From: Thermocoleostomius sinensis A174
GTDB lineage: Bacteria > Cyanobacteriota > Cyanobacteriia > Elainellales > Elainellaceae
DNA length: 64,000 nucleotides
Assembly (NCBI RefSeq): GCF_026802175.1
Contig: NZ_CP113797.1
Location: 4,751,026-4,815,025 of the forward strand
Direction: 5' to 3'
Positions 53,725 to 64,000 of the stretch are shown here, piece after piece (position 1 is the stretch's first letter; the number at the start of each line of letters is the position of its first letter). Below the pieces are notes generated by a model. It was not told the origin of the DNA. It saw only the letters and a list, made by a program, of their open reading frames with translations, and did no database searches. Position numbers and translations under genes: made by a program.

Positions 53725-55407
53725 TCAGCAATCGCCCGCTAAACGCACCTCTTGGACGATCGGTAAGTCGTTGAGGAACTGGCGATCTTCGCTGACATGA
53801 GGAAATTTTAGCTGCGACTCGGCCATGCCGTTTTGAATCAAATGATACCGTAGCCGGGCAAAACTGCCCGATTCTAAAATGCGGAGGCGTGGTTGAGGAA
53901 TTTGATCGCGCCGTTTGATGGCATAGAAAGCATGAACCTCTTGGAGAATATCGTCAAACTTTTGCAAGAACAGGTCTGGCTGCGATAGCGTTTCTCCAGG
54001 GGCTAATTCAATGTTGACCAAATAATGGGGAGGAATCGCGTCGTCAGATAGGGTGATGCAGAAATTCTCCAGTGTTACATTAAACGCCTGCTGCAACATT
54101 TGCATGGTTTGAGTTACATGAAACTCGCTAGTCTTTTCGGTGGAAGCTGATAGAACGCCACCTCGACGGTGCCGAAAAATCATCAGCGGTGCCCGCCCAA
54201 CCATGCCATCAATTTCGACGACATCGCCTAAGTCATAGCGATAGAAGCCAGCATAGTTGCTAAACACCAGACGATAGCGCTTGCCCACCTGCACTTCCCA
54301 CGGCAACAACGTTTTTGGATATTTGACTTCCCACTGATCTTCGGGAATGAATTCAAAGAATCCACTGTCGATCGCCGGAAATACGCTGTCGGTGTTGAAA
54401 TCGCGATGCACGCCTAACACTCCTTCAGCACAGGCGTAGGTGCCACCAAAAATGGGAGTATCGCCAAAAAATTCAGGGAAGCGATCGAAGTAGAAATTTG
54501 AGGTGCCACCCCGCGCTGTCACCATAAAGGACAGATCCGGCCAAGCATATTTGGGTAACAGTCGTCCGTGGCTGTGAAGTACCTGACGCAAATAGTCAGC
54601 GCGATCGGGAGCCGCCGACCACTGTTGTTCTAGTTTGAAGCGCAATTCTGGTTCCAGTTTCAGCCAGTGAGCCATTTCGCCTGTTTCCAAATCTTGAATC
54701 AGTTCGTCGGCGTTGGCTTCCAAATGTTCGCACAGTTGCAGCGCTAATACGGGAAAGGTGGCTGCAATCACGCGCAGATCGGCATTGCGCAGGGCAAATA
54801 AAAGGCAAATATAGTACCGCGTTTTTGTGTCGGAAATTTGCACTGCTTCAAACGGATAGGTGAAAATTTGGCGATAGAACCAATTTCCCAACCGTAGATC
54901 GCTAGTGCTAACTGGAGCATAGGCAATGCCGCTTTCAGTGTAGCCCAACGGTTTGACCGACAGAGGAAGCAACATTTTGCCGAGTGGTCGTCCCGATCGC
55001 CGCGCTGCACCTACCAGAAACCCGAGAGCAGCTTGATTGGCTCTAGAAACAAACCGACGCGATCGTTTCGTGACAGGAATCAGCTTTTTGTGCCCGGTGG
55101 AACCACTGCTGAGATTAATGTAAATTACCGGATCGGGCGTCAAGATGTTCGGCTCCCCTTTGGCCATACGCTGGGTGTAGGGATCAAAGGCACTGTAAGG
55201 CTGTACAGGCAGTCGATCGCGAAATTGATCAATGGTTTTAATCTCACCAATCCGATACTCTTGCCCAAACGCTGTATTCTGATAAGCTTGCAGCAGCGAT
55301 CGCAGAAATGTTTCTTGGGTGGCTTCAATCTGGTCAAGGCGATGCAAAAACTTGGCTTTCGATTGGGAAGCGACAACGGACAAGGCAGATAGAACTAGGT
55401 TTACCAT
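53725..55407 (-). CDS. GH3-family acyl-adenylate amide synthetase
   Basis: A 560-residue member of the GH3 (auxin-responsive) family. These enzymes activate a carboxylic acid with ATP and join it to an amino acid. The ATP loop is YINLSSGSTGHKKLIPVTKR. Further family signatures are YACAEGVLGVHRDF, the VFSNYAGFYRYDLGDVVEI motif, and the C-terminal cap region with LRYHLIQNGMAESQ. Plant members conjugate jasmonate or auxin. Bacterial members have largely unknown substrates. It follows a cysteate-synthase-like gene by 163 bp on the same strand, so an amino-acid conjugate made from that product is possible (inference). Confidence 0.88.
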   Translation of the reverse strand: MVNLVLSALSVVASQSKAKFLHRLDQIEATQETFLRSLLQAYQNTAFGQEYRIGEIKTIDQFRDRLPVQPYSAFDPYTQRMAKGEPNILTPDPVIYINLSSGSTGHKKLIPVTKRSRRFVSRANQAALGFLVGAARRSGRPLGKMLLPLSVKPLGYTESGIAYAPVSTSDLRLGNWFYRQIFTYPFEAVQISDTKTRYYICLLFALRNADLRVIAATFPVLALQLCEHLEANADELIQDLETGEMAHWLKLEPELRFKLEQQWSAAPDRADYLRQVLHSHGRLLPKYAWPDLSFMVTARGGTSNFYFDRFPEFFGDTPIFGGTYACAEGVLGVHRDFNTDSVFPAIDSGFFEFIPEDQWEVKYPKTLLPWEVQVGKRYRLVFSNYAGFYRYDLGDVVEIDGMVGRAPLMIFRHRRGGVLSASTEKTSEFHVTQTMQMLQQAFNVTLENFCITLSDDAIPPHYLVNIELAPGETLSQPDLFLQKFDDILQEVHAFYAIKRRDQIPQPRLRILESGSFARLRYHLIQNGMAESQLKFPHVSEDRQFLNDLPIVQEVRLAGDC

Positions 55408-55570
55408 TGCTGCATCAAGATATGGGAATCAGGACGTGAGGAGTAGGGAGTGGGAAACAAGTGAGCAAATGACTATCATACCGAGGGCTGGACTATGGCT
55501 GGAAAGATGGTGTGAGAAATGATACTATGAGCAAAGGGTTGGGACGCTCAAGTCCACACCTTTCCGCGCC

Positions 55571-56959
55571 TTACACGGCTTCCAGGTCGTTAGCGCTGAG
55601 CAAGATCGGATTGCGTTGATCTTGTTCGAAGTGTTCGAGGACAATCTCTGGTTGAATCTCATGGGGCGCGAATGCGATTGCAGGCTGAAGGGTCTGCAAC
55701 GGATAGTCTTGTTGCATCCGCTTGGCTCCTCCTCCAGTAATATTGAGTAAGATGCAGTCCCGGCGATCGAGGTTCCCGGCTTTCACCGCTTGAAGCAGAG
55801 CGGCTGTGGCAACGCCAGAGGCCGGGCAAATGTCAATTCCTTCTAGTTCTTCAAACAATACTCTGGCTCGTTCGGCTTCGCGGTTGGTGACGCCATACAT
55901 TTGGCCATCGGTCTCCAGCAAGGCTTCATACAATCCACCTGCAATCGAATAGGCAGGCTGGCGATTGGTTAACACTTTGGCGGCCACGCGGTTAATTTGT
56001 GCTTTGGCTCGGTTTTGATGCATGGGGGGGAGATCTCGACTCTTGGCGTTCCAAGCTTCAACCATTGGGGTAAAGGGGGCATTTTGCGCCAGATGTAATT
56101 TCATGCGGTTGCTGCCAAATCGCCCGTCTTCCAGTAGGCGCAGATTGGCTTCCCAGGCAGAAATTCCACCGGTGCCCGATCCGACGGCTTGAAAATAATG
56201 ATCGGGAATGCGACCCAAGCTCACAGCGGCATCTAAGACTGTCAATCCCATGCCATCGCGGCGGGCAACGTTGGCGGCTCCTCCTTCTGGGAAATACTGA
56301 TCTAATTGGCTAATCATCTTTCCGAGGGCAATCGCATCAGAATAATCACCATTGCCACTGACGACTACCAAGCGAACGTTGGGCTGGAAGCGGTACCTAG
56401 ACCAGATCGCCGATAGGTTTTGCCCAGGGATGACCAAGCAAAGAGGGAGTCCTTGGTCGGAACAGACGGTAGCAAAGGCACGACCTGTGTTTCCGGCAGA
56501 AGCAATAACCAAGGTGCGGGGATGGTGAGAAGGGATTCTTGCTAAGACCGAGGGCGCTTCTAATTCTTTAAACGAACAGGTGTACAATTCGGCTTGGCGA
56601 TCGGGCCAGTACCCATTGAAGCTGATGTAAAGCTGGCTGAGACCTAAGTACCGGGCAAGATTGTGGCTTTCATAGGTAATGGGCTTGCCAGCTACGTTGA
56701 GAGTTTGCTCAACGGGTAGCCAATCCATATAGCGAAACAAACCGGGAAGCTGTTCTTTCACCTCCAGCTTTTTCGATCGATACACCGCTCGCAGTAAGGC
56801 CGGTTCGTGCTCGGCGTCACAGTGGAGGCGGAAGGGATCGGGATCGTACTCTGCTCCGCACAAGGTACAACACAGCGTATATTTGGGCCTACGAAGTAAA
56901 CGATGAAGGGTCTGAGACACCGTGAGTCCGTCCTTGAGTCTGCTCGATGTACTGCTCAA
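55571..56959 (-). CDS. Cysteate-synthase-like PLP enzyme (threonine synthase fold)
   Basis: A 462-residue PLP enzyme of the threonine-synthase/cysteate-synthase group. Cysteate synthase makes L-cysteate from O-phosphoserine and sulfite. PLP-binding Lys131 lies in CSFKELEAPS. Asn in VIASAGNTGRAFATV and the glycine loops EGGAANVARRDGMG and AVGSGTGGISAWEA follow, and the end ILLNITGGGAKR is characteristic. An N-terminal Cys-rich segment (CCTLCG with Cys47 in LHCDAEH) resembles a small zinc site. The segments LPGLFRYMDWLPVE and LYISFNGYWPDR favour cysteate synthase over ordinary threonine synthase, but the substrate is not proven. Upstream of GH3, downstream of the importer genes. Confidence 0.82.
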   Translation of the reverse strand: MSSTSSRLKDGLTVSQTLHRLLRRPKYTLCCTLCGAEYDPDPFRLHCDAEHEPALLRAVYRSKKLEVKEQLPGLFRYMDWLPVEQTLNVAGKPITYESHNLARYLGLSQLYISFNGYWPDRQAELYTCSFKELEAPSVLARIPSHHPRTLVIASAGNTGRAFATVCSDQGLPLCLVIPGQNLSAIWSRYRFQPNVRLVVVSGNGDYSDAIALGKMISQLDQYFPEGGAANVARRDGMGLTVLDAAVSLGRIPDHYFQAVGSGTGGISAWEANLRLLEDGRFGSNRMKLHLAQNAPFTPMVEAWNAKSRDLPPMHQNRAKAQINRVAAKVLTNRQPAYSIAGGLYEALLETDGQMYGVTNREAERARVLFEELEGIDICPASGVATAALLQAVKAGNLDRRDCILLNITGGGAKRMQQDYPLQTLQPAIAFAPHEIQPEIVLEHFEQDQRNPILLSANDLEAV

Positions 56960-57081: not shown

Positions 57082-57891
57082 TTACTGGCGTTGCTGTTTG
57101 GAGATGAATTGAAACGCGAAAAAGGCGATCGCAATCATACTAAAGGAAAATAGGGTGGTTAGGGTTCCCAGGGCATACAGAGCCGGCGAAGTAACGTTGG
57201 TGGTCATACCGAAGATTTCTAGCGGCAGCGTATTGTACTGTCCAGACACCAACGAAGTACGAGTAAATTCGTCGTAGGACAAGGTGAAGGTTAAAATACC
57301 CACGCCCAGCAAGCTGGCAAAAATAAGAGGGAAGACAATTTCCCAAAAGGTTTTGAAATCGTTGGCTCCCAAGTCTCGTGCTGCTTCTTCGCAGGATGGA
57401 TTGAAGCGATTAAAAATTCCCAGCATGATCAAAAAGGCAAAGGGCACAGTCCAGGTGAGGTGTGCACCTAATCCAGAGGTGAACCATTCGGTTTGCAGCC
57501 CCAACACTTGAAAGGTAATGCCGATGCCTAATGACACCAAAACGCTGGGCACAATCAGGCTAGCGATCGTCAGGTAAAAAATTGCGCCCGATCCTTTGAA
57601 GCGATGGCGGAAGGCCAGCCCTGCCAATACACTAACGGTAATTGACAGCAACATGATCAGCACCCCCAGCACAAGCGATCGTTGAAAGGCATCGACAAAG
57701 TTGCCAACGCGCTGTTCTTGAAACACCTGCCCCAACCAATAGAAGCTGAAGCCACGCATAGGAAAAGTGAGGGTACCTTCGGGTCCCTGAAGCGACAGCA
57801 TAAAAATTGTAATCATGGGGCCGTAGAGAAACAGCACAAATAGCCCAAAAAAGGCAGCTAAAGCATAGAAAGACAATGGGCGTTTTTTCAT
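57082..57891 (-). CDS. Polyamine-type ABC transporter permease (PotC-like)
   Basis: A 269-residue inner-membrane permease with six helices and the EAA loop (EEAARDLGANDFKTFWEIVFPL) that contacts the ATPase. The pattern fits PotC in spermidine/putrescine-type importers. It starts 5 bp after the PotB-like gene, with AGGAG directly before its ATG, so the two are translationally linked. The final permease of the importer set. The transported molecule is not evident from sequence. The same family also carries amino-compounds other than polyamines. Confidence 0.93.
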   Translation of the reverse strand: MKKRPLSFYALAAFFGLFVLFLYGPMITIFMLSLQGPEGTLTFPMRGFSFYWLGQVFQEQRVGNFVDAFQRSLVLGVLIMLLSITVSVLAGLAFRHRFKGSGAIFYLTIASLIVPSVLVSLGIGITFQVLGLQTEWFTSGLGAHLTWTVPFAFLIMLGIFNRFNPSCEEAARDLGANDFKTFWEIVFPLIFASLLGVGILTFTLSYDEFTRTSLVSGQYNTLPLEIFGMTTNVTSPALYALGTLTTLFSFSMIAIAFFAFQFISKQQRQ

Positions 57892-57896
57892 GGCTC

Positions 57897-58775
57897 CTAT
57901 AGCTCTTTGCGAATATCAACCACGCGCAAAATCCCCACGACTAGTAGTAGCGTCACCACCAACAAAATCACGGCATTGGCGGCAGCTAAGGGGTATTGCA
58001 AACTGCCAATCTGGGTTTGAATTAATTTCCCGATCGAGGCCGATTGTCCGCCGCCCATCAACCGCACCGTAACGAATTCGCCCATCACCAGCGTCACCAC
58101 AAAAATCGAGCCGATCGCAATCCCTGGAGCCGCCAAGGGCAAAATAATTTCTTGCAAAATTTGCCACCCGGACGCGCCCATGTCTTGCGCGGCGGTAATC
58201 AAGGTGCGATCGATCCGCATCAAGCTGTTGAAGATGGGCGCAATCATAAAAAAGTTATACAGATGCACCATGCCCAACACCACCGCGAAATCAGAATAGA
58301 GCAACCAATCTACAGGCTGATCAACGAGATTGAGACCTAGCAGAAGCTGATTCACTAATCCTTCTCGACCCAATAGCGGAATCCAGGAAATCATCCGAAT
58401 AATATTCGATGTCCAGAACGGAACCGTGCAAATCAAAAACAGAATAATTTGCCAGGTTGAGTTCTTCACATAGAACGCAAGAAAGTAAGATACGGGGAAG
58501 GCGATCGCTAAACAAAAGAACCAAACTAGGGCAACATATTTGAATGTATTGAGATATGTTCTGAGAGTAACTTCTGACGTAAAGATAGATGTGTAATTGT
58601 CCAGCGAAAAGGCCGGAACCATCGAATAGCCCGTGAATTGCCAAAAGCTGACAATAAAAATCATGAGAATAGGCAACACCAGGAATAATAGAAATACCAG
58701 CGTCTGCGGTGTTGCCAAGAAATAGGGGGTGAATGCTTTGAGAGGATGATTCATAGTTGGGTAGGAGCGAAACAT
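57897..58775 (-). CDS. Polyamine-type ABC transporter permease (PotB-like)
   Basis: A 292-residue permease with six membrane helices (TLVFLLFLVLPILMIFIVSF first) and the EAA-type loop ITAAQDMGASGWQILQEIILPL. It pairs with the PotC-like protein to form the channel. The start at 58775 has GGGAGG about 11 nt upstream. An internal ATG at 58754 is an alternative. Encoded 72 bp after the binding-protein gene on the same strand, so one operon is likely. Confidence 0.93.
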   Translation of the reverse strand: MFRSYPTMNHPLKAFTPYFLATPQTLVFLLFLVLPILMIFIVSFWQFTGYSMVPAFSLDNYTSIFTSEVTLRTYLNTFKYVALVWFFCLAIAFPVSYFLAFYVKNSTWQIILFLICTVPFWTSNIIRMISWIPLLGREGLVNQLLLGLNLVDQPVDWLLYSDFAVVLGMVHLYNFFMIAPIFNSLMRIDRTLITAAQDMGASGWQILQEIILPLAAPGIAIGSIFVVTLVMGEFVTVRLMGGGQSASIGKLIQTQIGSLQYPLAAANAVILLVVTLLLVVGILRVVDIRKEL

Positions 58776-58847
58776 TCAGAAGAGAACCTCCCAATGTGTG
58801 GTCAAAACTGACTCCCAAATGCTTCACCAGTACAGATTAAATTGCCT

Positions 58848-60179
58848 CTAAGAAGCCACAAACTCGTTCCACTTTTGCACAAGGTATTGCTGTTCGTCCA
58901 TTGTGGAGTTCCAAACCACCACATTACCCATGCGTTCTTTAAACGAACCGCCATCGCGCACGGCTCCTGCTGACTCCAGCTTCTTGCCAAACGGATCGAT
59001 CATGTCTTCGGCGGCGGGTTTGCCTTCATACCAGAAATCATACTCGGCTTGCGACATGAACTTCTTAGCGTTTTCCGGCACCGCGCTGTAGTAGCCTTGC
59101 CGTCCCAAGAAGGCACCCACCCAACCGTCTAGCATCCAGTTCATGTACTCGTAGGCTGCATCCAAATTAATTCCCGAAAGATTCTTCGACAGTCCAATGC
59201 CGCCGCCCCACCCACGATAGCCTTCTTTCATCGGTGCGTAGATGCACTGAATTCCTTGTGACTTTACCGCCGTCACCGCAGGCGACCACATCGATTGCAG
59301 CACTACTTCGCCCGACGACATCAAGTTCACCGATTCATCAAAGGTTTTCCAAAAAGCTCGGAATTGTCCGGCTCGTTTCTGTTCCTTCAATAAATCGGTA
59401 ATCTGATCAATCTCTTCGCGGGTCATATTGCCCTTGTCGCCGAACTTCATCAATCCTGATGCTTCCGCTACCATTGCTGCGTCCATGATGCCGATCGACG
59501 GAATATCGAGAATCGAGGTTTTGCCTTTAAACTCGGGATTGAACAATTCTGCCCAGCTTTCAATTTTGCGGTTGACCAAATCTGGACGATAGCCCAAGGT
59601 GTCAGCGTTGTACTGGAACGGCAGTAGCGTGGCCCAGTTAGTAGGTTCGGTGGCAAATTCGGTCGAATTTTGGTCGGTCAAATACATCACCTTAAAAGGA
59701 TAGGTTCCTTGTGAGGTTTCCACCGGAGTACCGTCAAACTTGCCTTGAGTGAAGATTGGCACAATTTTGTCAAATTCGGTGATTTTGCTGACATCGATCG
59801 CCTGCAAATTACCGGATGGCACCACTAGCGGCAAACTGAAAAATTCACCGTCAAAAATGTCGTATTGTCCCGGCTGGGAAATGGCAATCTGGTTATTTTC
59901 CTCAGTGCTCAGCGCCCGCATTTGCAGCTTGAAGCCCAAATCTTCTTGGGCTTTGTCGCGAATTTCGTTAATTTGAGACACGCCTGTGCCAATAAACCGC
60001 AGCGTTACATCTTTGATTTGATTAGTATTAACTTCTGGGCCAGTCGCAGGATTATTCGGTGTGCCGCTAGGGGCATTGGTTTGGGCGGTATTTGTTCCGC
60101 TAGCGCAGCGGGCTACGGTAAAGGCAGCACCCGCAGCTAATCCGGTCTTCATCAGTTTGCGGCGAGAAAGTCTAGTCAT
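58848..60179 (-). CDS. ABC transporter substrate-binding protein (PotD-like), Tat signal
   Basis: A 443-residue periplasmic binding protein of the spermidine/putrescine-type family. The N-terminus has a twin-arginine signal (SRRKLMKTGLAAGAAFTVA), so it should be exported folded through Tat. Cys25 after TVAR is not a canonical lipobox, so lipid anchoring is doubtful. A Thr/Asn/Pro-rich linker leads to the binding domain (FIGTGVSQINEIRDKAQEDL, WATLLPFQYNADTLGYR, GGGIGLSKNLSGINLDAAYE). The ligand cannot be named. It is separated from the ATPase gene by a tandem-repeat hairpin. Confidence 0.92.
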   Translation of the reverse strand: MTRLSRRKLMKTGLAAGAAFTVARCASGTNTAQTNAPSGTPNNPATGPEVNTNQIKDVTLRFIGTGVSQINEIRDKAQEDLGFKLQMRALSTEENNQIAISQPGQYDIFDGEFFSLPLVVPSGNLQAIDVSKITEFDKIVPIFTQGKFDGTPVETSQGTYPFKVMYLTDQNSTEFATEPTNWATLLPFQYNADTLGYRPDLVNRKIESWAELFNPEFKGKTSILDIPSIGIMDAAMVAEASGLMKFGDKGNMTREEIDQITDLLKEQKRAGQFRAFWKTFDESVNLMSSGEVVLQSMWSPAVTAVKSQGIQCIYAPMKEGYRGWGGGIGLSKNLSGINLDAAYEYMNWMLDGWVGAFLGRQGYYSAVPENAKKFMSQAEYDFWYEGKPAAEDMIDPFGKKLESAGAVRDGGSFKERMGNVVVWNSTMDEQQYLVQKWNEFVAS

Positions 60180-60222
60180 AGGGGTATTCAGGTAAGTGAT
60201 AGAGAGGGGTGGGGAGGAATTG

Positions 60223-60329
60223 GTAATGGGTAATTAGTAATGGGTAATTAGTAATGGGTAATTGGTAGTGGTAATCAGTCATAACCTATCACCTATTACC
60301 GATTACCCATCATCCATTACCCTCCTCAC
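60223..60329. repeat. Three 14-bp tandem repeats with inverted complement
   Basis: GTAATGGGTAATTA occurs three times in tandem (60223-60264, last base of copy three changed). Imperfect complementary copies follow at about 60288-60321 (ATTACCGATTACCCAT and CATTACC). The block lies between the end of the ATPase gene and the start of the binding-protein gene in the same operon, and its transcript can form a long stem. It may protect the downstream mRNA or reduce read-through. Confidence 0.75.
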
Positions 60330-61508
60330 CTAATGTGGTAAAAAGATACAGTTTTCGGTGTCCCAACTCAGAGTAACGAGTTGTCCTTCGTTTGCGGCTT
60401 GGGTGAGCCAGTCGTGGGTGCGAATTTTGTAAACAATCTCTTCGCCAGTGGCTTCGGCTAATAGGGAAACACGAGTCACATATCCAGTGAATTCGATCGC
60501 CACAACCCGAGCTGTTAATTGATTGGGGGCAGACGGGTTGCTGGGAGGATAGGGCCACAGGGTCATGCAATCGCTGCGCACACAACAGGCGGCGGTCATA
60601 CCCACATCAGCCGCTTGACCGCGACAGAGAAAGGTGCCAAGGCGATCGACTTCCAGTTCAATAATGGCACCCGTGTGAGCGGCGGCTACACTTGCTACCT
60701 TGCCCACAAAGATGTTGTTATCTCCAACAAAGCGGGCCACAAAGCGAGAGGCTGGTGTGTTGAAGATTTGATCAGGGGTGCCGATTTGGTCAATGCGGCC
60801 GTGATCCATGACCACGATTTGATCTGAAAGAGCAAAGGCTTCGTCTTGTCCGTGTGTGACTTGAATAAAAGTCATGCCAAACTCTTTCTGCAATCGCCGC
60901 AACTCGGTGCGCGTTCTCACCCGCAAATTTTCATCCAAAGCGCTGAGCGGTTCGTCAAGCAATAATACCTGGGGGCGAGTGACGAGTGCCCTGGCCAAGG
61001 CGACCCGCTGCTGTTGTCCACCGCTGAGTTGGTTGGGTTTGCGATCGGCAAACTTTATCAGCCCTACTACTTCCAGAATCTCCGCTACACGACGAGTGCG
61101 TTCTTCCTTGGGCACGTTTTTCATGCGTAGCCCAAAATCGATGTTCTGCCACACGGTTTTGTGGGGAAACAACGCATAGCTTTGAAACATCATCGAGGTG
61201 TTGCGCTGCGCTGGTGGTAAATCATTTACCCGTCGATCGCCAATGAATAAATCCCCCCTTGTAATTTCTTCATGGCCAGCAATCATGCGCAGTGTCGTCG
61301 TTTTGCCACAGCCACTTGGTCCCAACAAACAAGTATAAGATCCGGCTGGAATCTCCAAATTGATATCTTCAACCGCCGTAAAGGAGCCATACTGTTTTGT
61401 CACCGAGCGCAGAGTCACCCCGGCGGTATGCGAGGATAGTTCTTCTTGGATGCTGCCAATGGGAGTCGATGACAGTTTTGACGTTGAAGCAGAGACAGGT
61501 AAAGTCAT
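60330..61508 (-). CDS. Polyamine-type ABC transporter ATPase (PotA-like)
   Basis: A 392-residue ATPase with N-terminal ABC domain and C-terminal TOBE domain. Walker A LLGPSGCGKTTTLRMIAG, Q-loop MMFQSYALFPHKTVWQN, signature LSGGQQQRVALARALV, Walker B VLLLDEPLSALDENLR, switch His in QVTHGQDEAFAL. The TOBE part starts near residue 300. It energises the importer formed by the following three genes and is the first gene of that group. An operator-like sequence stands about 190 bp upstream. Confidence 0.94.
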   Translation of the reverse strand: MTLPVSASTSKLSSTPIGSIQEELSSHTAGVTLRSVTKQYGSFTAVEDINLEIPAGSYTCLLGPSGCGKTTTLRMIAGHEEITRGDLFIGDRRVNDLPPAQRNTSMMFQSYALFPHKTVWQNIDFGLRMKNVPKEERTRRVAEILEVVGLIKFADRKPNQLSGGQQQRVALARALVTRPQVLLLDEPLSALDENLRVRTRTELRRLQKEFGMTFIQVTHGQDEAFALSDQIVVMDHGRIDQIGTPDQIFNTPASRFVARFVGDNNIFVGKVASVAAAHTGAIIELEVDRLGTFLCRGQAADVGMTAACCVRSDCMTLWPYPPSNPSAPNQLTARVVAIEFTGYVTRVSLLAEATGEEIVYKIRTHDWLTQAANEGQLVTLSWDTENCIFLPH

Positions 61509-61812
61509 AGGAAAACCGTCAAGCTAGGAAATGATGACACATGGCGATGATGAATCACGGGTGGGTGGAGGCGCATCGCGGAGAACTAGACAACCTAGAC
61601 AACAGAGTGCAACCCGGATGGTGACTTGAAAACAGTCGCTAGGGGGCTAACTAGAAAACCGATAGGATTCAGTACAAATCTTTTTGGAGGGATAGATTGT
61701 ATTCAAAATCACATTTCATTAGGATTTTTGTAGTCTATCTCTCGATAGTGGCCTTTACGCTATCTTTCCCGAATTTGACTATTTGTCTACAACTTGTCTA
61801 CAACCTTGATCC
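61509..61812 (-). promoter_or_regulatory. Importer promoter region with operator-like site
   Basis: A 304-bp spacer. ATTGTATTCAA at 61696-61706 is identical to a sequence at 63120-63130 next to the GntR palindrome and resembles its half-sites, so the same regulator may act here. The AT-rich stretch around it could hold the importer promoter. No other gene is seen. Confidence 0.4.
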
Positions 61813-63063
61813 TTACAGCGGATAGAGTCGATCGAGTTGCAGAAAGGTTTGCAGCAAAACATTGGCTCCTTGGGTGCATTGCTCAGGCGATGTATATTCT
61901 TGACCAGAGTGGCTGAGTCCGTTCTGGCTCGGCACAAAAATCATACCCATGTCTGTAAACCGTCCCATTTCCATCGCGTCATGTCCTGCCCGGCTGGGTA
62001 ATGAGCAGTAGCCCAACCCTGAGTCTTGGCAAACCTGAGCGATCGTTTCTTGAATGAGCAAAGCAGCGGGGGTCGGATCAACGCACAGCACTGGAGCTAT
62101 GCTGATGTCGGTATGGGTAGCTTGGGCGATCGACTGAAGGGTATCTGCCAATTGCTGTTCCATCTCGTTGAGGCAGGCTTCGGACAGATCGCGCATATCC
62201 ACCATCAGGTCTACTCGACCGGGCACAATGTTGGCCGCGTTGGGCGAGACATTCAAAAATCCAACGGTGGCGACTGGTTGGCTCGGTTGACGCAGGGCCA
62301 TTTGCTGTACAGCTAGGATCACCTGGGCGGCAGCCACCAGCGCATCTTGGCGAGCAGTCATCGGAGTAGTTCCGGCATGGTTTTCTTGTCCAAGGATGGT
62401 GATGGAGTGTCGCCGCATTCCTACCACGCCTTGCACCACCCCGATCGCCATCTCGAATTGTTCCAACACTGCCCCCTGTTCGACGTGCAATTCCACAAAG
62501 GCGGCCATGTCGCGCTTGGTGCGTTTTGCGGTTGCTAGAGCATCCCAATTGCCGCCAATTGTTTCCAGATGGGCTTCGATCGATCCGCCAATTTTGGGGC
62601 GATAACGATCGGGCGCTTGCAGCAGGGCTGTACCAGCCATTGCCTGACAGCCAATCATACTGCTCTCTTCGTCAGTAAACACAATGACCTCGATCGGGTG
62701 ATCTAGATGAAGATGTTGTTCGTGCAGGGTTCGCACCATCTCAATCCCTGCCAGTACACCTAATACGCCATCATAGGGACCACCCGACGGCACGGTATCG
62801 ATATGCGATCCGGTAGCCAAAGCAGGTGCATCTTCGACTCGGCCAGAATAGCGCCCAATCACATTTCCAGCAGCGTCAATGCGCACCGTCATTCCGGCTT
62901 CGCTCATCCACTGCTGCACTAGATAGCGCGCTTGCAAATCTGCGGGCGTGAAGGCCAACCGACAAATATCACCATTCTCCAACTTCCCCACCTTCGCTAG
63001 GCGATCGATGTTAGCATTAAGCCGATCGCCATTGATGGTCAGCTTTTTTGTTAAAACGGTCAT
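61813..63063 (-). CDS. M20-family amidohydrolase (allantoate/N-carbamoyl amino acid type)
   Basis: A 416-residue zinc-dependent hydrolase of the peptidase M20 carbamoylase group, whose members cleave allantoate, N-carbamoyl amino acids or ureidoglycine-type amides. Metal-binding and catalytic residues are visible: His and Asp in ATGSHIDTVPSGGPYDG, the Glu pair in VIVFTDEESSMIG, HVEQGAVLEQ, and the late His in PSRAGHDAMEM. The dimerisation domain (GMRRHSITILGQENHAGTTP) lies between. ATG 63063 is used, because the reading upstream crosses the operator palindrome. Divergent from a GntR regulator and upstream of an importer, consistent with hydrolysis of the imported molecule. Confidence 0.9.
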   Translation of the reverse strand: MTVLTKKLTINGDRLNANIDRLAKVGKLENGDICRLAFTPADLQARYLVQQWMSEAGMTVRIDAAGNVIGRYSGRVEDAPALATGSHIDTVPSGGPYDGVLGVLAGIEMVRTLHEQHLHLDHPIEVIVFTDEESSMIGCQAMAGTALLQAPDRYRPKIGGSIEAHLETIGGNWDALATAKRTKRDMAAFVELHVEQGAVLEQFEMAIGVVQGVVGMRRHSITILGQENHAGTTPMTARQDALVAAAQVILAVQQMALRQPSQPVATVGFLNVSPNAANIVPGRVDLMVDMRDLSEACLNEMEQQLADTLQSIAQATHTDISIAPVLCVDPTPAALLIQETIAQVCQDSGLGYCSLPSRAGHDAMEMGRFTDMGMIFVPSQNGLSHSGQEYTSPEQCTQGANVLLQTFLQLDRLYPL

Positions 63064-63088
63064 CCTTGAACACTCCCTATCTATGATT

Positions 63089-63105
63089 TTGTATACTGTA
63101 TACAA
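63089..63105. promoter_or_regulatory. 17-bp perfect palindrome, GntR/FCD-type operator
   Basis: TTGTATAC-T-GTATACAA lies between the divergent hydrolase and GntR genes, 26 bp before the hydrolase start. The core TTGTATACAA is typical of operators bound by FadR/FCD-type GntR proteins. A related ATTGTATTCAA follows at 63120-63130. Autoregulation and control of the hydrolase are the likely roles. Confidence 0.75.
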
Positions 63106-63303
63106 GCTTAACCAAAATTATTGTATTCAATCCTACCGCTAGCACATTTAATGAATTAGGGAGGGTGTGAGGGAGGGCGAGGATGCATGAATCGATATAG
63201 CATGGTGATCCTAGCAGTCTGAAGGGGATCAGCTTTTTCTAGCTGCCCATTATCCCAGCGCCCATCCCCGAGAACACGGTTCATTGTTGACGGAGGCTAC
63301 GCC

Positions 63304-64000
63304 TTGTCCATATCTCTCAACTCAATTCAGCGAAGTAAATCTCTATATGAGCAAACCTATGATGCCCTGCGCACTAGTATTCTCACTGGAGATTTAGAAC
63401 CAGGAGCACGACTAGTAGAAACTCAACTGGCCGAACAGCTTCAAGTCAGCCGCACCCCTATTCGTGAAGCCATTCGACAACTGCAACGGGATAATTTAGT
63501 GACAGCCGATGCAAACGGAAGCTTGCGAGTCACCACAATCTCGATCGCCGATGTGGCTCAGTTGTATGATTGTCGTATTGCCCTAGAACAGTTGTCAGTT
63601 GAAGCAGCTTGTCAAAATGCCACCGCCTTGCAACTGCGACGGCTTGAAGACTTGGTATCACAAGCTGAGCATCTCCAAACCCAACCTTGGGCCCAATCCG
63701 CTCGATCGCCCCGCTCCAGTTCCTATCTGTTGGATTTGGATTACCAGTTTCACCATACGATCGCGGAAAGTTCGCAAAATCGCTGGTTGGTGACGTTGCT
63801 GGAACAAGTGTTCGACCAAATGACCCTGCTGCGGGTGCAAACCACTCGCCACAACCCCAGGGTGTTGGAAATCCGGTTAGAACATCGCCAGATTTTTACT
63901 GCCATAGCCCAACGGGATGTAGTGGCATCCGTGGATGCAATTCGATCGCACCTGATCGCCAGCAAAGCCAGAGTGATTCAAGAAGTGAAGAATTTGCATG
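63304..64000 (+). CDS. GntR-family regulator (FCD), right end outside window
   Basis: The first 232 codons of a GntR/FadR-type repressor. The winged helix-turn-helix is in YDALRTSILTGDLEPGARLV, then LAEQLQVSRTPIREAIRQLQ. The FCD ligand-binding domain starts near residue 80 (LYDCRIALEQLSVEAACQNA) with metal-site residues in LDLDYQFHHTIA and IRLEHRQIFTAI. The start is TTG 63304, with GGAGG 7 nt upstream, and no ATG fits the N-terminus. It presumably senses a carboxylate or amino-acid-like ligand and controls the divergent genes. Confidence 0.9.
   Translation, partial: MSISLNSIQRSKSLYEQTYDALRTSILTGDLEPGARLVETQLAEQLQVSRTPIREAIRQLQRDNLVTADANGSLRVTTISIADVAQLYDCRIALEQLSVEAACQNATALQLRRLEDLVSQAEHLQTQPWAQSARSPRSSSYLLDLDYQFHHTIAESSQNRWLVTLLEQVFDQMTLLRVQTTRHNPRVLEIRLEHRQIFTAIAQRDVVASVDAIRSHLIASKARVIQEVKNLH

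What the first reader, a model, noticed from the sequence alone, without database searches (positions are those of the whole stretch)
53725..56959. Cysteate-synthase-like enzyme paired with a GH3 amide synthetase
A PLP enzyme with cysteate-synthase signatures is followed on the same strand by a GH3-type enzyme that joins acids to amino acids. Together they suggest synthesis of a cysteate (sulfonated amino acid) conjugate, perhaps an acyl-cysteate lipid or signal. I know of no described pathway with this pairing.
Basis: inference. Interest (0 to 1): 0.6.

Follow-up and report, generated by a model that had tools for sequence, protein, structure and literature searches.

The report
Cysteate synthase paired with GH3 ligase
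A cyanobacterium carries, side by side, an enzyme that should make the sulfonated amino acid cysteate and an enzyme of a family that joins acids to amino acids; the same two genes sit together in several other cyanobacteria, which points to an undescribed sulfonated lipid or signal.

Summary
Window 55571-56959(-) is a cysteate synthase (CS; TIGR03844, 520 bits, cut-off 324.9); 163 bp downstream on the same strand, 53725-55407(-) is a full GH3 enzyme. The genome has a separate threonine synthase. CS is rare in cyanobacteria (4 of 386 genomes), yet a GH3 lies within 5 kb of it in 9 of 18 CS-bearing cyanobacterial genomes or records found, including 4 of 4 in the window's order, where GH3 is universal (36 of 36). 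In the main clade the flanking genes mostly differ, and the two gene trees are compatible. A distant CS lineage is also paired, with other GH3 branches. Six of the nine unpaired CS lie in a taurine-like cluster. GH3 neighbours are often lipid-modifying genes, and GH3 co-occurs with an alpha-oxoamine synthase (22 of 23 genomes), so the acid is probably a fatty acid. Best reading: CS makes cysteate and GH3 N-acylates it to an N-acyl-cysteate aminolipid. A capnine route is less supported, as the cyanobacterial oxoamine synthases lack the SulA lysine, but it is not excluded. Substrates and product are inferred; nothing biochemical was tested. A new variant of known kinds.

The parts
55571..56959 (-). 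cysteate synthase (PLP fold type II; O-phosphoserine + sulfite to L-cysteate, function inferred from family)
   Evidence: TIGR03844 520.4 bits vs cut-off 324.9; PF00291; PDB 9k3c E 8.5e-128; in an alignment of 4 cyanobacterial homologues FKELEA is invariant, SAGNT is kept in 3 of 4 (SAGST in G374) and the glycine loop reads GSGTGG or GSGAGG
53725..55407 (-). GH3 acyl-acid amido synthetase of the CS-linked clade
   Evidence: PF03321 251.6, PF23571 77.1, PF23572 72.8 bits; plant GH3 structures; in a 5-row set with the CS-linked GH3s of G401, G394, G421 and the GH3 of G215 at SH-aLRT 98; loop YAPVSTSD
55408..55570 (-). 163-bp gap between the two genes; no terminator-like or sigma-70-like site was found in it, so one transcript is possible but not shown
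   Evidence: coordinates; scan (consensus matches only)

Best explanation
The two genes form a small module. Step 1 (inferred from the enzyme family): CS makes L-cysteate from O-phosphoserine and sulfite. Step 2 (inferred): the neighbouring GH3 enzyme adenylates a long-chain, perhaps hydroxylated, fatty acid with ATP and Mg2+ and transfers the acyl group to the amino group of cysteate. The product would be N-acyl-cysteate, a sulfonated relative of the N-acyl-ornithine made by the planctomycete GH3 enzyme OlsH, used as an aminolipid, its lyso precursor, or a signal. Shown here: family membership, adjacency, its recurrence, compatible trees of the two genes in the main clade, and lipid-type genes near several of the pairs. 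Not shown: substrates, product, expression.
For: CS and GH3 identity. In the window's order GH3 is in 36 of 36 genomes and CS in 4 of 36; in all 4 a GH3 adjoins CS. Of 18 distinct CS-bearing cyanobacterial genomes or records, 9 have GH3 within 5 kb: G000, G401, G417, G421 and Lyngbya confervoides (directly downstream, same strand), G394 (divergent), G570 (tail to tail), G159 and G374 (two genes between). CS tree: window, G401, G417, G394, G421 form one clade (100/98); G159+G374 are a distant pair (100/100). GH3 tree: window, G401, G394, G421 fall in one set (98, with G215, in which no CS was found) with a branching order compatible with the CS tree, while the GH3s of G374 and G159 sit in other GH3 branches, so CS probably met GH3 more than once. 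In 4 of the 8 paired genomes searched (G000, G394, G401, G417) there are further GH3 genes, and the CS-linked one is a separate gene. Position 164 is Ala in 6 of 8 CS-linked GH3s (G in G159 and G570) and in 1 of 64 others; this loop aligns with hormone-binding residues V172/L173 of VvGH3-1 (alignment; residues from passages of PMC4294127). Lipid-type neighbours: OlsC-like hydroxylase beside GH3 in G374 (254 bits, cut-off 450), OlsE-like hydroxylase beside CS in G401 (114 bits, cut-off 475), PF04116 fatty-acid hydroxylase next to CS in G159 and G374 and Mpo1-like PF06127 in G159. In G159 a CuyB-like cysteate racemase (123.6 bits, cut-off 190) lies between CS and GH3. OlsH shows that a bacterial GH3 N-acylates an amino acid with free fatty acid and ATP (PMC12493201).
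Against: No substrate, product or transcript was tested. 9 of the 18 CS-bearing genomes or records have no GH3 beside CS. A prediction written down beforehand held in 1 of 2 test cases (G570 yes, G618 no). One origin of the pair is not ruled out by the well-supported branches of the CS tree. G159, G374, G421 and L. confervoides have a single GH3, so there the GH3 is not an extra, CS-specific copy. The window GH3 is far below the OlsH cut-off (98 vs 620 bits). The basic residue that goes with acidic amino acids in plant GH3s is Lys at window position 152 and K in G159, but Q, N, N, N, Q in G401, G394, G421, L. confervoides and G374. CS of G374 has Ser for the Asn of the SAGNT block. No O-acyltransferase was recognised among the neighbours whose families were searched. 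In G570 the CS lies inside an oxoamine-synthase cluster, which fits the capnine rival as well.
Confidence: 0.5

Rival explanations
1. Capnine-type sulfonolipid. CS feeds cysteate to the genome's alpha-oxoamine synthase (AONS), which condenses it with an acyl thioester to 3-ketocapnine; an SDR reduces it, and GH3 or the GNAT N-acylates capnine to a sulfonoceramide.
For: An AONS orthologue (71-100% identity) is in all 8 paired genomes searched and in the unpaired CS genome G530, but not in the 4 Moorena-type CS genomes searched (best 34%). In G570 CS sits between Rieske and GH3 in an SDR-GNAT-AONS-Rieske-CS-GH3 cluster. AONS (28 of 386) and strong GH3 (23 of 386) overlap in 22 genomes. Outside cyanobacteria 6 of the CS loci have an AONS on the same stretch, 4 of them right beside CS (L086, L099, L118, L126).
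Against: At the position of SulA Lys281 (whose change to Ala cuts activity by three orders of magnitude, PMC9304779) the 29 different cyanobacterial AONSs have I, C or V (30 rows, the window genome's counted twice). As controls, the 6 AONSs of non-cyanobacterial CS loci have K in 3 (L086, L112, L126) and N in 3 (L099, L118, L122), so the mark separates less cleanly than hoped. The AONS is mostly found without CS (25 of the 28 AONS genomes lack CS). Each paired genome searched has only one close AONS, whereas 4 of 8 have a CS-linked GH3 besides other GH3s.
Confidence: 0.25
2. GH3 attaches cysteate, as a head group, to a carboxylic acid other than a simple fatty acid (an oxidised lipid, a hopanoid or a secondary-metabolite acid), giving a small sulfonated amide signal rather than a membrane lipid.
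For: Plant GH3 enzymes conjugate small acids to amino acids, some of them to aspartate; the CS-linked signature loop aligns with the acyl-binding loop; Rieske and fatty-acid hydroxylase genes beside other GH3s could make such acids.
Against: Recurrent neighbours include fatty-acyl modifiers, and the tested bacterial relative OlsH uses fatty acids.
Confidence: 0.15
3. The adjacency is genomic hitch-hiking: CS serves taurine-like osmolyte or sulfonate metabolism (as its neighbours suggest in Moorena) and GH3 has an unrelated substrate.
For: Moorena and Symploca CS lie beside PLP decarboxylase, methyltransferase and mostly TauD-methyltransferase genes; GH3 is universal in the window's order, so one chance meeting followed by inheritance is possible.
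Against: Pairing in two distant CS groups with different GH3 branches, in different orientations and among mostly unrelated neighbours; rough chance figure 5e-10 for the four genomes of the order if they were independent, which they are not fully (where two fragments of one broken GH3 in G417 were counted as two genes).
Confidence: 0.1

Closest known systems
Cysteate synthase TIGR03844 (coenzyme M branch of Methanosarcinales; also Alistipes/Odoribacter sulfonolipid branch)
   Same: Full-length match far above the curated cut-off; same PLP lysine block; nearest solved structure is a cysteate synthase
   Different: Lies beside GH3; the main cyanobacterial CS group is sister to CS of three Spirochaetes and one Aminicenantes record in the tree
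OlsH, lyso-ornithine lipid synthetase (planctomycete GH3; NF052613, PMC12493201)
   Same: GH3 domains and motifs; ATP-dependent amide synthesis expected; OlsC- or OlsE-like lipid hydroxylases in two of the paired neighbourhoods
   Different: 98 bits against an equivalog cut-off of 620; gene partner is cysteate synthase, not OlsI
Plant GH3 acyl-acid amido synthetases (JAR1, VvGH3-1, PBS3)
   Same: Best solved relatives, E 1.4e-35 to 4.5e-28; active-site Lys (PBS3 Lys428 position) kept at window K425 and in all 71 cyanobacterial rows
   Different: Bacterial; acyl-pocket loop differs; probable acid is a fatty acid
Bacteroidota sulfonolipid (capnine) pathway: CapA or CS, CapB/SulA, CapC (passages of PMC10191378; abstract and one section of PMC9304779)
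   Same: Uses cysteate to build a lipid
   Different: Needs a cysteate-using oxoamine synthase; the cyanobacterial AONSs lack SulA's Lys281; no GH3 step in the passages read
Roseobacter sulfur-containing aminolipid SAL (SalA; passages of PMC8319176, PMC11631085)
   Same: Expected product class: an amide-linked aminolipid with a sulfonate head group
   Different: Head group is aminopropane sulfonate or cysteinolic acid, not cysteate; its N-acylation gene is stated to be unidentified; SalA is an O-acyltransferase

Membership tests
Cysteate synthase (TIGR03844) | score above the curated equivalog cut-off | tested here: met
   520.4 vs 324.9 bits; CS of G159 465.9, G374 445.7, G421 498.2, L. confervoides 513.7
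Cysteate synthase (TIGR03844) | distinct from the genome's threonine synthase | tested here: met
   separate ThrC, TIGR00260 338 bits (cut-off 167) at L002
Cysteate synthase (TIGR03844) | turns O-phosphoserine and sulfite into cysteate | not testable with these tools
   needs an enzyme assay
GH3 family (PF03321/PF23571/PF23572) | three GH3 domains above cut-off and three nucleotide-binding motifs | tested here: met
OlsH lyso-ornithine lipid synthetase (NF052613) | score above the equivalog cut-off | tested here: not met
   98.5 vs 620 bits
OlsH lyso-ornithine lipid synthetase (NF052613) | ATP-dependent N-acylation of an amino acid with free fatty acid | not testable with these tools
   needs an enzyme assay
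Capnine-type sulfonolipid pathway | oxoamine synthase with the SulA lysine (Lys281) | tested here: not met
   I, C or V in 29 of 29 different cyanobacterial AONSs; K in 3 and N in 3 of 6 AONSs from non-cyanobacterial CS loci
Capnine-type sulfonolipid pathway | cysteate synthase in the genome | tested here: met
Bacterial ceramide pathway (Spt, bCerS, CerR) for the AONS-GNAT-SDR genes | AONS, N-acyltransferase and reductase present together | tested here: inconclusive
   AONS and a GNAT co-occur (21 of 21 AONS genomes tested) with an SDR next door in 3 loci; NCBIfam models are below cut-off or absent and no bCerS/CerR reference was compared

The most novel reading that the evidence does not exclude
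Some cyanobacteria make a sulfonated aminolipid, N-acyl-cysteate or an O-acylated form, by a two-enzyme route (cysteate synthase + GH3) that I did not find in the papers searched. It would be a second use of GH3 chemistry in bacterial lipids and would offer a candidate chemistry for the unidentified N-acylation of aminosulfonates in roseobacter lipids.
Probability: 0.45. Interest if true: 0.75.

Novelty: new variant of a known kind. Interest (0 to 1): 0.6.

Why it matters
Amide-linked aminosulfonate lipids are known from roseobacters, where the N-acylating enzyme is stated to be unidentified (PMC11631085, passages), and a 2023 review describes cysteate-derived sulfonolipids as apparently limited, among bacteria, to Bacteroidota (PMC10191378, passages). 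A cyanobacterial CS-GH3 module would add a phylum, a two-gene route with a clear enzyme test, and a substrate hint for bacterial GH3 enzymes, of which one (OlsH) was tested in the papers read. Sulfonated lipids of bacteria can act as signals (Algoriphagus RIF-1, recalled), so the product is worth looking for.

Tried and rejected
Threonine synthase for the PLP enzyme: rejected.

OlsH for the GH3: membership cut-off not met.

SulA-type capnine synthesis: tested through the Lys281 position and not met in cyanobacteria; kept as a rival because CS sits in an AONS cluster in G570 and because only 3 of the 6 AONSs in non-cyanobacterial CS loci carry the lysine themselves.

Membership of the upstream polyamine-type ABC transporter genes (57082-61508) in the module: set aside, because they do not recur beside CS in the other paired genomes; a GntR regulator of the same family as window 63304-63999 does lie near CS in G401 (L159).

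Acidic-amino-acid lysine as proof of cysteate use: rejected, not conserved among CS-linked GH3s.

Ala164 as a general mark of CS-linked GH3s: only 6 of 8, since G159 and G570 have Gly.

A CS relic beside the GH3 of G215 (same loop as the CS-linked clade, no CS match): one 25-residue match at E 0.057, too weak to use.

Structure prediction was not run: the fold is clear from sequence, and I expected no coordinates for a pocket analysis.

Literature: 'cysteate synthase' with 'GH3' 0 papers; with cyanobacteri 1 paper, where it occurs only in the reference list; 'cysteate synthase' alone 13 papers, of which I looked into three. 'Gretchen Hagen 3', cyanobacteri, amido synthetase (two of three) 199 papers, 10 listed. 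'Sulfonolipid' with cyanobacteri 40 papers, 12 listed, none of them opened. Six names for acylated cysteate and cysteinolic acid: 13 papers, hits only for 'cysteinolic acid'. Searches were the other searches.

Rows dropped: the GH3 tree kept rows of at least 450 aa, so the broken GH3 of G417 is absent; residue counts dropped 8 remote rows of 79; duplicates L071, L074, L077 were left out of the CS tree, and G570 and G618 were found after it. Neighbourhoods were fetched for 32 of the 64 GH3 matches. 'Strong GH3' (E below 1e-70) was set after seeing the gap.
Full report
What is there. On the minus strand the window holds a 462-aa PLP enzyme (55571-56959) followed after 163 bp by a 560-aa GH3 enzyme (53725-55407). 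The PLP enzyme matches cysteate synthase TIGR03844 at 520.4 bits (cut-off 324.9); threonine-synthase models stay far below their cut-offs, and the nearest solved chain is cysteate synthase 9k3c. The genome, one contig of 5.8 Mb, has one CS over the cut-off and a separate threonine synthase. The GH3 protein has the three Pfam GH3 domains, plant GH3 relatives among solved structures and the three nucleotide motifs. No terminator-like site was found in the gap.

How common the pair is. In a 386-genome sample of the phylum CS is in 4 and GH3 in 52. In the window's order (36 genomes) GH3 is in 36 and CS in 4, each with a GH3 next to it. In two overlapping samples of another order CS is in 8 of 195 and 11 of 388. 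Nine have GH3 within 5 kb: G000 (window), G401, G417 (Leptolyngbyaceae CSU_1_4; GH3 broken into several ORFs), G421, G553 (Lyngbya confervoides BDU141951), G394, G159, G374 and G570. Nine do not: G360, G463, G520, G539, G569 and Moorena SIO3H5 (L075), where a PLP decarboxylase lies near CS (a TauD-methyltransferase too in all but L075), and G530, G551 (L076) and G618. Of these nine, G463, G569 (searched as G549) and G551 have a GH3 elsewhere and G360, G520, G530, G539 none; G618 and L075 were not searched whole. Apart from the pair, the main clade's neighbours are mostly unrelated from genome to genome.

Phylogeny. The CS of the window, G401, G417, G394 and G421 form a clade (100/98) inside a cyanobacterial group whose sister is CS of three Spirochaetes records and an Aminicenantes record; G159 and G374 form a distant pair (100/100) whose exact place is not well supported. 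The GH3s of window, G401, G394 and G421 fall in one set (98) with a compatible order, plus one GH3 from G215, in which no CS was found. The GH3s of G374 and G159 lie in other GH3 branches, and that of L. confervoides is a long branch of uncertain place. So the pair looks inherited as a unit in one lineage and probably formed again elsewhere; the CS tree alone does not rule out one origin. Ala at position 164 is in 6 of 8 CS-linked GH3s against 1 of 64 others, and 8 of the 17 positions special to the main clade lie in two blocks, 164-169 and 323-334. The first block aligns with hormone-binding residues V172/L173 of VvGH3-1, and window V330 with its Y342 (alignment, read by eye; residues from passages of PMC4294127). 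This suggests a changed acyl pocket.

What the GH3 works on. Around 31 GH3-bearing loci (32 fetched) the recurrent neighbours are a fatty-acid hydroxylase (10 loci), an Mpo1-like 2-hydroxy-fatty-acid dioxygenase (8), an amidohydrolase (8), an MFS transporter (8), a Rieske-family oxygenase (8), an OlsC-like hydroxylase (5) and an alpha-oxoamine synthase (5). Across the 386 genomes the AONS is in 28, strong GH3 in 23, both in 22; G296 has strong GH3 without this AONS, and six genomes have the AONS without strong GH3 (not corrected for phylogeny). A GNAT gene goes with the AONS: it is in 21 of 21 AONS genomes tested and in G296, absent or weak in the 6 other genomes tested. This looks like a sphingolipid-type pathway. 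OlsH, the one bacterial GH3 with tested chemistry among the papers read, N-acylates ornithine with free fatty acids, ATP and Mg2+ (PMC12493201; abstract, sections 6-8 and part of 9).

Choice between mechanisms. Direct N-acylation of cysteate by GH3 is preferred because where GH3 is multiple (4 of 8 paired genomes) a separate GH3 goes with CS while the AONS stays single, because most AONS genomes have no CS (25 of 28), and because the cyanobacterial AONSs lack the lysine of known cysteate-using synthases (29 of 29 different sequences; PMC9304779, section 9). That mark is not perfect: of 6 AONSs in non-cyanobacterial CS loci 3 have K and 3 have N. The best counter-example is G570, where CS sits between the Rieske and GH3 genes of an SDR-GNAT-AONS cluster, so a capnine-type route stays open; and in G159, G374, G421 and L. 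confervoides one GH3 must do whatever GH3s do there. In G159 a CuyB-like cysteate racemase lies between CS and GH3, which supports cysteate as the pathway's amino acid.

Limits. All functions are by homology; no assay, expression or lipid data were available. A prediction noted held in one of two new cases. The lysine expected for acidic amino acids is present in the window GH3 (K152) but not in most CS-linked relatives.

Literature. 'Cysteate synthase' with 'GH3' gave no paper. A 2023 review calls sulfonolipid synthesis in bacteria apparently limited to Bacteroidota (PMC10191378, passages), although a 2021 paper classes a roseobacter aminosulfonate lipid as a sulfonolipid (PMC8319176, passages). 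A 2024 review states that the N-acylating gene for that lipid is unidentified (PMC11631085, passages). PMC11211663, PMC11253546, PMC11334938, PMC8539013, PMC4294127 and PMC12172450 were seen as passages only.

Noticed in passing
L043 7813-14695 (G000:C1 about 2355800-2362700): A second GH3 of the same genome lies with an OlsC-like hydroxylase, MFS, Rieske oxygenase and an alpha-oxoamine synthase. Across 386 genomes this AONS is in 22 of 23 strong-GH3 genomes: a candidate cyanobacterial sphingolipid-type pathway with GNAT and SDR partners.
   Followed up: partly
L041 4023-14331 and L072, L075, L077, L162, L163: In Moorena and Symploca the cysteate synthase lies with a PLP decarboxylase, in most also TauD-methyltransferase and small methyltransferases, in some a ProX-like binding protein and a gene of unrecognised family (372 aa) that I took for an amidinotransferase; this could be a route to methylated taurine (taurobetaine-like) osmolytes.
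   Followed up: partly
L039 11330-13766, L052 10535-12875 and six other loci: A conserved trio (PF04116 fatty-acid hydroxylase, Mpo1-like, PF04909 amidohydrolase) sits near GH3, in most loci divergently.
   Followed up: partly
L039 8630-9325: CuyB-like cysteate racemase (123.6 bits, cut-off 190) between cysteate synthase and GH3 in G159, suggesting D-cysteate.
   Followed up: no
L160 4988-6668 and L065 8774-10396: The CS-linked GH3 of G417 is broken into several ORFs (low-coverage MAG); G215 has a GH3 of the CS-linked type with an altered third motif, and no cysteate synthase was found in its genome.
   Followed up: partly
window 57082-63999: Directly upstream of CS on the same strand is a polyamine-type ABC transporter set with a hydantoinase/carbamoylase-family amidohydrolase; a GntR regulator lies on the other strand. 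The set does not recur beside CS in other paired genomes, but a GntR of the same family lies near CS in G401 (L159 12742-13509).
   Followed up: partly
L237 4464-12327: In G570 the cysteate synthase lies inside an SDR-GNAT-AONS-Rieske-GH3 cluster, at the place where related clusters have an MFS gene.
   Followed up: partly
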